NCBI GenBank assembly: GCA_019314085.1 | Contig: JAFCZZ010000076.1 | Location: forward strand, 1 to 6,926 | Direction: 5' to 3' | Length of the DNA: 6,926 nt | Source of the DNA: Deltaproteobacteria bacterium | GTDB lineage: Bacteria; Desulfobacterota; Syntrophia; Syntrophales; UBA2210 | In this document: piece after piece, positions 370 through 2,829 of the stretch | Layout of the letters: each line of letters begins with the position of its first letter | Numbering within the stretch: position 1 is the first letter of the stretch | Made by a program: the position numbers and the translations under genes | The notes under the pieces: generated by a model | Seen by the model: only the letters and a program-made list of their open reading frames with translations | What the model was told of the DNA's origin: nothing | Database searches by the model: none

Positions 370-966
370 TCAGGTTCGTGGTCCCGGCTTCTTGACCAGT
401 TGTCTGCCCAGTTCTTCGGCCTTTTGCATGAGGGTCCCGTTTGTCTCAATCTCACCCGGTTCAAGAGCACTGCCGTAGACCATCCCCACGAGTCTGGAAC
501 CGGTATATCGAAAGGCGTCCTGAAAGGTGCGCAGCGCATTGACACACCCGGAGGCGAAAGGGTCCTCATCACCGTAACTCATAGCGATGGCTATGCGTTT
601 GGTGCGAAAGGGGTCCGGGCCGTAGGCGCCAAGCCCGAAGAGGCGATCCATAAACAGCTTCATCTGGGCCGACATGGTAAACCAGTAAACCGGGCAGGCC
701 AAGATCCAGGCCTGGCTTTCTATGAGTTTGGTGTAGACGGTCTGCATGTCGTCGTCAATGGCGCAACCCTTGCTGTCTTTTTTCTGGCAGGCGTAGCAGG
801 CCTGGCAGGTCGATATATCGAGATCGTTAAGACAGACCGTCTCTGTCTCAGCCCCGGCGGATTGAGCCCCGGTGATTATCCTCTGAGCCAGGGCGGTGCT
901 GTTGCCCTTCTTGCGCGGACTGGCGAGCAGTACAAGAACTTTGAATTGTTCCATTCGGTTTTCCAT
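370..966 (-). CDS. Isf-like iron-sulfur flavoprotein (NADPH-dependent FMN reductase/flavodoxin fold)
   Basis: This 198-residue cytoplasmic protein has a flavodoxin-like fold. The phosphate-binding loop is SPRKKGNST (residues 16-24), directly after the first beta strand. The segment CPVYWFTMSAQMKLFMDR (91-108) is the usual flavin-contacting strand and helix. A compact cysteine cluster at C54, C57, C60 and C68 (C-X2-C-X2-C-X7-C) matches the [4Fe-4S] motif of Isf proteins known from methanogens and other anaerobes. In that family FMN and the cluster pass electrons between ferredoxin and an acceptor. The physiological acceptor here is unknown. The length is normal. The ATG at 966 is preceded by a G-rich site (GGATGGGGG, about 7 nt away); a second in-frame Met (residue 5) is possible. 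The gene is the last of three on the - strand, 235 nt after the hydrolase, and a candidate promoter of its own lies in that gap. Confidence 0.85.
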   Translation of the reverse strand: MENRMEQFKVLVLLASPRKKGNSTALAQRIITGAQSAGAETETVCLNDLDISTCQACYACQKKDSKGCAIDDDMQTVYTKLIESQAWILACPVYWFTMSAQMKLFMDRLFGLGAYGPDPFRTKRIAIAMSYGDEDPFASGCVNALRTFQDAFRYTGSRLVGMVYGSALEPGEIETNGTLMQKAEELGRQLVKKPGPRT

Positions 967-1201: not shown

Positions 1202-2083
1202 TCAGGGAAGTTTTTGCCCCTCCATGCCCGTCCTGTCCGCTCTGTGCTCCTCGACAAGACCCACAAACCGTTCAAGTGTCTCCCAATATGATTCACCGGC
1301 GGTCCACATGAGGTCATTGTGGCGCGCCGCATCAACCCAGAATCTCATTTTCGGAGGATTTGCCTCCTCATAGAGCCGTTCTCCGTGCCAGAAAGGAATA
1401 ATGGAATCCTGTTTCCCGTGAATGACGAGGATTGGGCAGGGAAGGGCTTTAATCTTGTTGAGATTATTAAATTTGTCAATCGGAAAGAGAGGAATGGTTG
1501 TGACTACCCGGAATGCGGACACGAAGGAACTTTCGAGGATCAGGCCGCCGACGGTCTCCCGGACCGCCAGATCGAGAGAGGGCCCGCCACCAACTGATCT
1601 GCCAAAGAGCAGTATATTTTCTGGGCGAAGACCAATCTTCCGAACGGCATGGTCATAGACAGCCGAAATATCGGCATAAGCGGCATCCTCTGAAGGCTGT
1701 CCGGAGCTTGTTCCATAGCTGCTGTAATCATAGGCGATTACCGCGAAACCGTGTTTGTGGAACCGCTGAAGGACCTCCCGAATATCGCCCAGATCTTCGG
1801 CATTCCCATGACTGTACAAAATCGTATATGTCGCCCCGGGATTTTGCAGATAAAAAACTGAAATAAATGCACCTTTCATGGTTTTCAGTTTGAGGATCTG
1901 GTCAGTATCTGTGTAGGATGACGGTTGAGGCTGAAAGATGAGGCGATCCCCGAAAAACATGCCGTAGAGCAGAAAAAAAATATAGAGACTCAAGGCAATC
2001 GATCCTGTTGAACGGATGACCCCTTTCCAATTCAGTTCACCAGTCACAAGTTTCTGGGGTATTTTAGTGTCCATATCACGCAT
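1202..2083 (-). CDS. Membrane-anchored alpha/beta hydrolase (ABHD17/Bem46-like serine hydrolase)
   Basis: This 293-residue protein starts with a short polar tail and then one hydrophobic segment (about residues 25-43), probably a signal anchor that leaves the catalytic domain outside the cytoplasm. The core shows the alpha/beta hydrolase landmarks in order: an HG oxyanion motif in SHGNAED (91-97); the nucleophile elbow GRSVG with Ser163; the acid Asp226 in HGKQDSIIP; and His255 in ARHNDL. The order and length fit the ABHD17/FAM108/Bem46 group, whose members are esterases or thioesterases. The substrate cannot be read from sequence. The gene begins 36 nt after the stop of the MerB-like gene, which suggests cotranscription. 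The start is uncertain: the ATG at 2083 and the one at 2074 (Met4) both lack a close Shine-Dalgarno site, with AGAGGAAGG about 15 nt before the first, so translation may be coupled to the upstream gene. Confidence 0.85.
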   Translation of the reverse strand: MRDMDTKIPQKLVTGELNWKGVIRSTGSIALSLYIFFLLYGMFFGDRLIFQPQPSSYTDTDQILKLKTMKGAFISVFYLQNPGATYTILYSHGNAEDLGDIREVLQRFHKHGFAVIAYDYSSYGTSSGQPSEDAAYADISAVYDHAVRKIGLRPENILLFGRSVGGGPSLDLAVRETVGGLILESSFVSAFRVVTTIPLFPIDKFNNLNKIKALPCPILVIHGKQDSIIPFWHGERLYEEANPPKMRFWVDAARHNDLMWTAGESYWETLERFVGLVEEHRADRTGMEGQKLP

Positions 2084-2119: not shown

Positions 2120-2818
2120 TTACAACTTCCAAAATGATCCAGACGTTTCAAGCTTCTTAAGATCATTTACAAATTCGGATCCATATTCTCGAAGATGGGA
2201 AACATAATCCGGGTCCATGCGTCGTTTAAAATAGTTTCCGGAAAAAAGCTTGACCAGATCAGGCAACGAAATGATTCCTTCACGGGTTTCCGGAACAAAT
2301 CCAGACCAGTTTCGAAGGTGTTCTTCCGACCGGAAGAAAAGCATGGTACTTCAGGCATAGGGGACGTTCTGCAACCATTTAACAAAGGGAACAGACACAT
2401 GACCGATCAGTCCCTCCGGCTCCTCTTTTTGAATGGTCCCGTCTTGAATTTCTACGCGTATCGGCTCTCCACAATCCAGGCATGGTGAGTCGATCCGAAT
2501 GGTTTTGCCAGGGAAAAGCCAGCAGACCGCCAGCGATTCAAAAGCTCATTGACCGAACCATTTCTGCTCACCATCGATGGTGATTCGAAACTGGGTAGGA
2601 AGGTTGTTGAAAGGCGCAAAGGAGGTTATCAGGTCCGTATCCGGGAAAAGCCACCCAGGGATCCCCGCGGCAAAAAGTGCATGGAGCGCCTTTCTCCCCT
2701 CATCCGGTGAAATTTCCAACTCCTGTGCAATTTCAGTATAATGCGGTGCCTGACCCGTCTTAACCATGCGCTTCATAATAACATGAAAGGTTTGGTCCAT
2801 TTGACTAAAATCATTCAT
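2120..2818 (-). CDS. MerB-like organometallic lyase, selenoprotein with two in-frame TGA (Sec91 and Sec156); resembles SaoL-type proteins
   Basis: Read through TGA at 2548-2546 and 2353-2351, this is one 232-residue frame ending in TAA, with no frameshift. Residues 1-60 look like the winged-helix N-domain of alkylmercury lyase, and the rest follows the MerB core. Around the first TGA, W-F-G-Q-U-A-F-E-S-L aligns with MerB Y-A-W-C96-A-L-D-T-L. SPCLDCGEP (C113, C116) aligns with the Cys117 region. Around the second TGA, Y-A-U-S-T-M-L-F-F aligns with F-C159-C160-H-V-H-F-F. MerB uses Cys96, Cys159 and Asp99 to break carbon-mercury bonds. Here both catalytic Cys become Sec, Asp99 becomes Glu94 and Cys160 becomes Ser. 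Each TGA has a SECIS-like hairpin. The start is firm: ATG at 2818 with GGAGGT 5 nt upstream. From memory, MerB-like selenoproteins named SaoL are known in anaerobes; membership of that family is unverified, as is the true substrate (organomercury, another organometal or none). The selA, selB and selC genes are not in this window. Confidence 0.88.
2321..2338 (-). promoter_or_regulatory. SECIS element for the second UGA (Sec156)
   Basis: In the - strand transcript UUCUUCC (2338-2332) pairs perfectly over 7 bp with GGAAGAA (2327-2321) around a GGUC tetraloop (2331-2328). The loop starts 19 nt after the UGA at 2353-2351. Bacterial SECIS hairpins sit inside the reading frame just after the UGA and carry G residues at the start of the apical loop for SelB binding, and this one fits on both counts. 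It also encodes residues in the F-F-R-S-E-E-H segment, so coding and structure overlap. Confidence 0.82.
2518..2534 (-). promoter_or_regulatory. SECIS element for the first UGA (Sec91)
   Basis: In the - strand transcript GCUGGC (2534-2529) pairs with GCUGGC (2523-2518) over 6 bp: four G-C pairs and two central G-U wobbles. The apical loop is GGUCU (2528-2524) and begins 17 nt after the UGA at 2548-2546. As I remember it, the E. coli fdhF SECIS has the same GGUCU loop about 18 nt after its UGA. The loop core GGUC is shared with the second element in this gene. Confidence 0.8.
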
Positions 2819-2823
2819 TTTTC

Positions 2824-2829
2824 ACCTCC
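2824..2829 (-). promoter_or_regulatory. Strong ribosome binding site of the MerB-like selenoprotein gene
   Basis: GGAGGT on the - strand, 5 nt before the ATG at 2818-2816, followed by GAAAA. It is the strongest Shine-Dalgarno match in the window. It fixes the start of the selenoprotein frame and argues that the gene is actively translated rather than decayed. Confidence 0.75.

What the first reader, a model, noticed from the sequence alone, without database searches (positions are those of the whole stretch)
2120..2818. A MerB-family enzyme with both catalytic cysteines replaced by selenocysteine
Two in-frame TGA codons split a frame that is otherwise intact from a strong ribosome binding site to TAA. 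From my memory of the MerB sequence, they fall at Cys96 and Cys159, the two catalytic thiols, while the Cys117 equivalent remains Cys. Two chance nonsense mutations are unlikely to hit just these two codons, both as TGA, with no frameshift elsewhere and a SECIS-like hairpin after each. Selenols bind soft metals such as mercury more tightly than thiols, so a diselenol active site suggests organometal chemistry that may differ from ordinary demethylation. I recall that SaoL, a MerB-like selenoprotein, has been described in anaerobes. The neighbours here differ from what I remember of that system, so this may be a separate context or branch.
Basis: partly seen in the sequence, partly recalled or inferred. 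Interest (0 to 1): 0.93.

Follow-up and report, generated by a model that had tools for sequence, protein, structure and literature searches.

The report
Mercury-lyase relative with two selenocysteines
Bacteria of at least two phyla carry a gene, usually cut short in the protein collection searched, for a relative of the mercury-detoxifying enzyme MerB in which codons that likely specify selenocysteine stand at both catalytic cysteine positions; it would be a selenium-based enzyme that probably breaks carbon-metal bonds, perhaps those of methylmercury in oxygen-free habitats.

The parts
2120..2818 (-). MerB-family gene with two in-frame TGA codons; 232 residues plus TAA
2546..2548 (-). TGA codon 91, predicted selenocysteine at the MerB Cys96 position
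   Evidence: TGA in 32 of 32 double-TGA loci, a set chosen for having two TGAs
2351..2353 (-). TGA codon 156, predicted selenocysteine at the MerB Cys159 position
   Evidence: TGA in 32 of 32 of the same set; 70 of 120 listed homologous proteins end just before this position in the alignment
2518..2534 (-). predicted SECIS-1 hairpin GCUGGC-GGUCU-GCUGGC, loop starting 17 nt after the TGA triplet
   Evidence: All six stem pairs form in 26 of 26 clade A+B loci, with hardly any variation; commonest codon 0.77, 0.92, 0.73 and 0.81 at E94, L96, A97 and V98
2321..2338 (-). predicted SECIS-2 hairpin UUCUUCC-GGUC-GGAAGAA, loop starting 19 nt after the TGA triplet
   Evidence: Loop GGUC at the same distance in 32 of 32; five inner pairs formed in 32 of 32, the sixth in 31, the seventh in 29; changes C-G to U-A and U-A to G-C; F162, R163 and S164 codons invariant in 26 of 26 clade A+B loci
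2823..2829 (-). ribosome binding site GGAGGTG, four bases before the ATG
   Evidence: Sequence
1202..2083 (-). alpha/beta hydrolase, 36 bases downstream on the same strand; probably one transcript (inference), but not a conserved partner
   Evidence: Pfam Hydrolase_4 4.1e-15; this neighbour is shared only with L001 among the 32 loci
370..966 (-). NADPH-dependent FMN reductase / flavodoxin-like protein, further downstream
   Evidence: Pfam FMN_red 1.1e-24

Best explanation
The gene encodes a MerB-family protein with TGA codons at both catalytic cysteine positions, each followed by a conserved hairpin, so it very likely makes a double selenoprotein that is predicted to cleave carbon-metal bonds with two selenolates in place of the two MerB thiolates. 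Shown by the calls: the MerB fold as a predicted model; TGA at the same two positions in each of 32 loci from two phyla (a set chosen for having two TGAs); an acidic residue at the Asp99 position in all 32; purifying selection across both TGAs; RNA-level selection on the second hairpin and codon bias in the first; SelB or tRNA-Sec in carrier genomes. Inferred from that: SelB and tRNA-Sec insert Sec at both codons. Inferred from MerB chemistry: Sec91 and Sec156 would take up an organomercury (or similar soft organometal) cation, Glu94 or Asp would deliver the proton that releases the hydrocarbon, and the metal would stay bound as a bis-selenolate until it is handed to a thiol carrier or to the CxxC at 113-116. 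No partner gene recurs beside it and neither mer nor SAO genes adjoin it in the window, which suits a stand-alone detoxification or scavenging enzyme; an anaerobic life of the carriers is inferred from the record titles, not tested.
For: Fold and residues. Conservation. Of 41 MerB-domain matches in 297 genomes of L001's phylum, 26 (in 20 genomes) hold exactly two stops, both TGA; 3 hold one TGA, 1 one TAA, 11 none. Of 67 match rows (some of them fragments) in 396 genomes of L002's phylum, 5 hold two TGA, 19 one TGA, 43 none. Hairpins at the permitted distance with energy of -7.5 or lower: 29 of 32 after TGA-1, 29 of 32 after TGA-2, against 179 of 384 control codons of the same genes. Covariation and frozen codons. 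Natural control: five of five single-TGA rows of the neighbouring clade (Cys at site 1, TGA at site 2) keep GGUC at offset 22, and the two rows of that clade with Cys at both sites have lost it. Machinery: SelB over cut-off in 18 of 20 and tRNA-Sec in 16 of 20 carriers, all 20 having at least one; second phylum, SelB in 20 of 22 TGA-bearing against 28 of 46 other genomes, Fisher p 0.012. Separate branch: the 26-row clade with the window has support 100/99.
Against: No protein or activity data. Within L001's phylum SelB is nearly universal (18 of 20 genomes without a MerB match also have it), so co-occurrence there says little. SECIS-1 pairs hardly vary and overlap conserved residues, so covariation does not support that hairpin; four of 26 loci have loop CGUGC, three AGUCU and one GGUGC there. 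The compensatory changes of SECIS-2 may be as few as two events. Three other single-TGA relatives (L108-L110) lack GGUC at offset 22, so that loop is not needed in every MerB-like selenoprotein. MerA passes its cut-off in only 2 of 20 carriers, so where the metal goes is unexplained. No neighbouring gene ties the enzyme to mercury. Bis-selenolate binding might trap Hg and make it a sink, not a catalyst.
Confidence: 0.72

Rival explanations
1. It is a double selenoprotein of the MerB fold but its substrate is not mercury: another soft organometal(loid), or it binds a metal ion without breaking a bond (sink, sensor or carrier). (This overlaps the best explanation in part, so the two odds do not add up to one.)
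For: No mer neighbours; MerA over cut-off in only 2 of 20 carriers; far below the MerB equivalog cut-off (41.7 against 193 bits); fused to a stretch with a weak AAA ATPase match in L105 and L107.
Against: The acidic residue for proton delivery is kept in 32 of 32 (26 Glu, 6 Asp), which a mere binder would not need; the Cys113 position is Cys in 31 of 32.
Confidence: 0.35
2. The TGAs are nonsense mutations or sequencing errors and the locus is a decaying merB.
For: In the protein collection searched it stands as a short protein: 116 of 120 listed N-terminal homologues are 90 residues long.
Against: TGA, with no TAA or TAG inside, at the same two codon positions in 32 loci (the set was chosen by its two TGAs, but their positions were not); dN/dS well under 1 beyond both TGAs; conserved hairpins.
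Confidence: 0.01
3. TGA is read as another amino acid (Trp or Gly code, or readthrough) and not as Sec.
For: 47 of 120 listed homologues carry Trp at both positions.
Against: The Trp most likely comes from gene prediction with code 4 on short contigs (inference; their DNA was not seen). TGA ends two neighbouring genes in the window and is the first stop after the MerB domain in 7 of 32 family members. Relatives have Cys at these positions. SECIS-like hairpins and SelB point to Sec.
Confidence: 0.02

Closest known systems
MerB, organomercurial lyase (plasmid R831b MerB, MerB2; PF03243, NF033555, NF009710)
   Different: Both catalytic Cys replaced by TGA; Glu for Asp in the main clade; extra CxxC at 113-116; 17-19% identity in the structural alignments; fails the NCBIfam MerB cut-offs; no mer genes beside it in the window
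SaoL, MerB-like organometallic lyase of the SAO system (NF040728; listed with one Sec, motif CU, in PMC13188914 Table 1, read)
   Same: MerB-like; Sec at the second site. L108 and L110, which pass the SaoL cut-off (175.3 and 148.4 bits), have TGA at the position of our codon 156
   Different: L108 and L110 keep Cys at the first site; the window scores 46.3 against a cut-off of 140; separate in the tree; no SAO genes beside it in the window
Other prokaryotic double selenoproteins, for example MbdU (NF045648) and MduS, listed in PMC13188914 Table 1
   Same: Two Sec in one protein; metal binding in the name of MbdU
   Different: The window does not match NF045648 at E 1e-3; none of the listed families with two or three Sec is named a MerB relative
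E. coli fdhF SECIS (recalled, from no call)
   Same: Apical loop with GGUC(U), hairpin just after the UGA
   Different: Here two per gene, 65 codons apart

Membership tests
MerB family in the wide sense (Pfam PF03243) | Pfam gathering score 27 bits | tested here: met
   80.6 bits with C for U
MerB family in the wide sense (Pfam PF03243) | MerB fold | tested here: met
Canonical MerB (organomercurial lyase) | Cys96, Asp99, Cys159 and Cys117 signature as used in PMC8261052 (passages) | tested here: not met
   TGA, Glu, TGA and Cys at these positions
Canonical MerB (organomercurial lyase) | NCBIfam cut-offs (NF009710, 193 bits; NF033555, 200 bits) | tested here: not met
   41.7 and 37.3 bits
Canonical MerB (organomercurial lyase) | Protonolysis of R-Hg | not testable with these tools
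   Needs the purified protein
SaoL (NF040728) | NCBIfam equivalog cut-off 140 bits | tested here: not met
   46.3 bits; two relatives that pass score 175.3 and 148.4
SaoL (NF040728) | SAO operon around it | tested here: not met
   The five neighbouring genes of the window scanned, none a Sao family; over the 32 loci no neighbour recurs in more than 3, though those neighbours were not all scanned
Bacterial selenoprotein | In-frame UGA conserved in homologues or replaced by Cys | tested here: met
Bacterial selenoprotein | SECIS hairpin just downstream of each UGA | tested here: met
   Second hairpin strongly, first by presence and codon bias only; no Rfam family matched it
Bacterial selenoprotein | SelB and tRNA-Sec in the genome | tested here: inconclusive
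   Window's genome not held; both over cut-off in the nearest relative G001. G002 has SelB, but none of its tRNA-Sec matches passed the cut-off
Bacterial selenoprotein | Selenium shown in the protein | not testable with these tools
   Mass spectrometry needed

The most novel reading that the evidence does not exclude
This is a missing methylmercury demethylase of anaerobes: a two-selenocysteine organomercury lyase, widespread in the phylum of L001 (Thermodesulfobacteriota) and present in many bacteria that also make methylmercury (hgcA), and overlooked because gene finders stop at its first UGA and surveys demand Cys96 and Cys159.
Probability: 0.3. Interest if true: 0.95.

Novelty: new variant of a known kind. 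Interest (0 to 1): 0.86.

Why it matters
A metal-carbon lyase whose two catalytic thiols are both selenols would be a new active-site design and a natural test of what selenium adds to mercury chemistry. Methylmercury demethylation is described as running by mer-dependent and by mer-independent microbial pathways, with merB said to favour oxic settings (PMC12997803, passages). A merB survey of 84,032 genomes screened for Cys96, Asp99, Cys159 and Cys117, and reports no HgcAB in genomes that encode only MerB (PMC8261052, passages). Here 10 of 20 carriers encode HgcA over the cut-off and 2 of 20 MerA, though the HgcA excess is not significant. The read-through reading and the hairpins give survey makers a concrete model to add and experimenters a concrete protein to test.

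Tried and rejected
I went through the genomes of L001 and L002 instead (on).

Conserved neighbourhood: none seen. Clusters of similar genes reach 3 of 32 loci at most. Only simple ORFs of at least 80 codons were used there and many contigs are short, so small, Sec-containing or distant neighbours may be missed. Ten proteins outside the window (two fusions and eight neighbours, one of these L001's copy of the hydrolase) were scanned with Pfam; none is a mer gene apart from the MerB domain of the fusions.

Rfam over 2050-2900: one match, RsaH at E 3.6, below its gathering score, taken as chance. Plasmids: 4 records, all at 25-29% identity, three annotated as MerB or alkylmercury lyase and one unannotated, so no close relative on the plasmids searched. 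Phages and E. coli genomes were not searched.

HgcA co-occurrence: 10 of 20 carriers over the cut-off against 4 of 20 genomes without MerB (p 0.096) and 9 of 34 of all others (p 0.14): suggestive only.

dN/dS: 24 pair-segments computed, 5 saturated. Of the 19 finite ones 18 lie between 0.045 and 0.254 (five of these with dS above 1, so rough) and one (L093-L097, codons 92-155) is 0.66.

The hairpin scan misses the window's own second hairpin because its 18 nt are shorter than the scan's minimum; it is plain. One search read the wrong strand. One search left minus-strand loci unturned and was redone. In one search the L108 and L109 references were misplaced and were redone.

Rows dropped: the 32 double-TGA loci are all 26, the 5 (one of them, G002:C189, taken as L002 by its coordinates) and the window. 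L022 (one TAA), G160 (not fetched) and duplicate short loci were left out of the tree; its CC and CU rows are the 30 loci fetched of 67 rows; long rows were cut to 260 residues. Structural matches below rank 8 are short winged-helix overlaps and were not used. The fold library 'viral' was not searched. The literature lists were capped: 20 of 31 papers shown and 15 of 21.

Full report

The two TGAs are conserved. In L001 (JAUSPK010000203.1, Syntrophales MAG, 94% identical protein) and L002 (JAOTYQ010000463.1, Acidimicrobiia MAG) both are TGA. Among 297 genomes of L001's phylum, Pfam MerB gives 41 matches in 34 genomes: 26 with two TGA (20 genomes), 3 with one TGA, 1 with one TAA and 11 without stops. 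Among 396 genomes of L002's phylum there are 67 match rows, some of them fragments: 5 with two TGA (4 genomes), 19 with one, 43 with none. I aligned all 32 double-TGA sequences: the 26, the 5 (one being L002) and the window. The set is chosen by having two TGAs, but both TGAs fall in the same two columns in 32 of 32. The Asp99 column is acidic in 32 of 32 (26 Glu, 6 Asp), and the Cys117 column is Cys in 31 of 32. Identity to the window runs from 94% down to 18%.

The protein collection shows the same thing indirectly. Of the 120 listed homologues (of 268), 47 have Trp at both sites, which I take to be TGA read by code 4 in gene prediction (inference; their DNA was not seen); 69 have Cys at site 1 and end just before site 2; 1 has Ser and ends there; 2 have Cys at both sites; 1 has Trp and Pro. 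With the first 90 residues as query there are 2569 homologues, and 116 of the 120 listed are exactly 90 residues long, as if cut at TGA-1.

Selection. dN/dS between window and L001 is 0.07, 0.20 and 0.17 before, between and after the TGAs. Over eight pairs, 18 of 19 finite values are at or below 0.254; the exception, 0.66, is a closely related pair with 15 differences in that segment.

SECIS. After TGA-2 the loop GGUC lies at the same distance in 32 of 32 loci, in a stem whose five inner pairs form in 32 of 32. The closing pair is U-A for C-G in L096, L101 and L102, where Trp stands for Arg in the protein. The sixth pair is G-C for U-A in L086 and L090, with Cys for Phe or Leu and Ala for Glu. 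These may be as few as two events. Among 45 columns where at least 85% of 26 clade A+B sequences share a residue (Met, Trp and U left out), the only three with a fully fixed codon are F162, R163 and S164, inside this hairpin; E165, also inside it, and L96 of the first hairpin follow at 0.92. After TGA-1 a GCUGGC-loop-GCUGGC hairpin forms in 26 of 26; its loop is GGUCU in 13, another GGUC form in 5, and AGUCU, CGUGC or GGUGC in 8. Its pairs hardly vary, so covariation cannot judge it; the six clade C sequences carry other letters there. The neighbouring clade gives a natural control: five single-TGA rows (Cys at site 1) keep the TTC CGG TCG GAR codons after their TGA, while the two rows of that clade with Cys at site 2 (L067, L076) have lost both the hairpin and the FRSEEH peptide. 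Against this, three other single-TGA relatives (L108-L110, two of them SaoL) do not have GGUC at that offset.

Machinery. The window's genome is not held. In L001's phylum all 20 carriers have SelB over the cut-off (18) or tRNA-Sec (16), none lacking both; since 18 of 20 genomes without MerB also have SelB, this is permissive, not discriminating. In L002's phylum, SelB is in 20 of 22 TGA-bearing genomes, in 17 of 26 with only TGA-free MerB matches and in 11 of 20 without MerB (Fisher p 0.012 for 20/22 against 28/46). In G002 itself no tRNA-Sec match passed the cut-off. selA and selD were not searched.

Place among relatives. In a 75-row tree (32 double-TGA, 8 single-TGA, 35 without) the double-TGA sequences form two groups, 26 rows (100/99) and 6 rows (100/100); the label needs two changes. 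The two rows that pass the SaoL cut-off (L108 and L110) lie outside both. Hence Sec at both sites either arose twice or was ancestral and lost; the tree does not decide.

Surroundings. The alpha/beta hydrolase, flavin reductase, thiolase and 2-oxoacid ferredoxin oxidoreductase genes of the window are no mer or SAO genes. Across the 32 loci no neighbour recurs in more than 3. In carriers MerA passes its cut-off in 2 of 20 and HgcA in 10 of 20 (not significant against genomes without MerB, 4 of 20, p 0.096).

How it probably works. From MerB chemistry (Cys96, Asp99 and Cys159 named essential in PMC8261052, passages) the inference is that Sec91 and Sec156 bind the organometal cation and Glu94 or Asp delivers the proton. 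That selenolates bind Hg(II) more tightly than thiolates is general knowledge, from no call. How the metal leaves is open; the CxxC at 113-116 (Cys116 in 29 of 32) is a candidate relay.

Known or new. The 2026 review PMC13188914 (passages; section 7 parts 1 and 2 of 3, with all of Table 1) counts 119 families and subfamilies; the only MerB relative listed is SaoL, with one Sec. Searches for SaoL, MerB, alkylmercury or organomercurial lyase together with selenoprotein or selenocysteine, for 'selenocysteine-assisted organometal' and for 'double selenoprotein' turned up no double-Sec MerB in the titles and abstract beginnings listed; the lists are capped, and I read none of those papers through. 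PMC9312934, PMC2398784 and PMC5029168 were seen as passages: the first lists a MerB-like selenoprotein, the other two had no hit for MerB or alkylmercury. Two papers by Haft and colleagues, cited by the review for SaoL and for double selenoproteins, were not held, so a mention there cannot be excluded. Among NCBIfam models of June 2026 the window passes the cut-off of none of the three it matches.

Noticed in passing
L104:7962-9347, L105:77-1639 (-), L107:7791-9341: The double-TGA MerB domain is fused to a long C-terminal stretch, about 290 residues in L105 and L107, with a weak AAA ATPase match in the two that were scanned (L105, L107).
   Followed up: partly
L066, L068, L071, L074, L075: A neighbouring clade with Cys at site 1 and TGA at site 2, GGUC hairpin kept, far below the SaoL cut-off in the three scanned (L066, L068, L075): a second MerB-like selenoprotein group apart from SaoL.
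   Followed up: partly
G224:C109:14250-15620: A MerA-like flavoprotein (411 bits, cut-off 454) with one in-frame TGA: possible selenoprotein disulfide reductase.
   Followed up: no
L067, L076: Relatives with Cys at site 2 that lack the whole FRSEEH peptide, suggesting that the peptide is there mainly for its RNA.
   Followed up: partly
L094:8508-9134: A C_GCAxxG_C_C redox protein starts 9 bases after the double-TGA gene in this one genome.
   Followed up: no
L096, L098-L102: A very divergent double-TGA group (18-22% identity to the window) with Asp at the acid position and a different first hairpin.
   Followed up: partly
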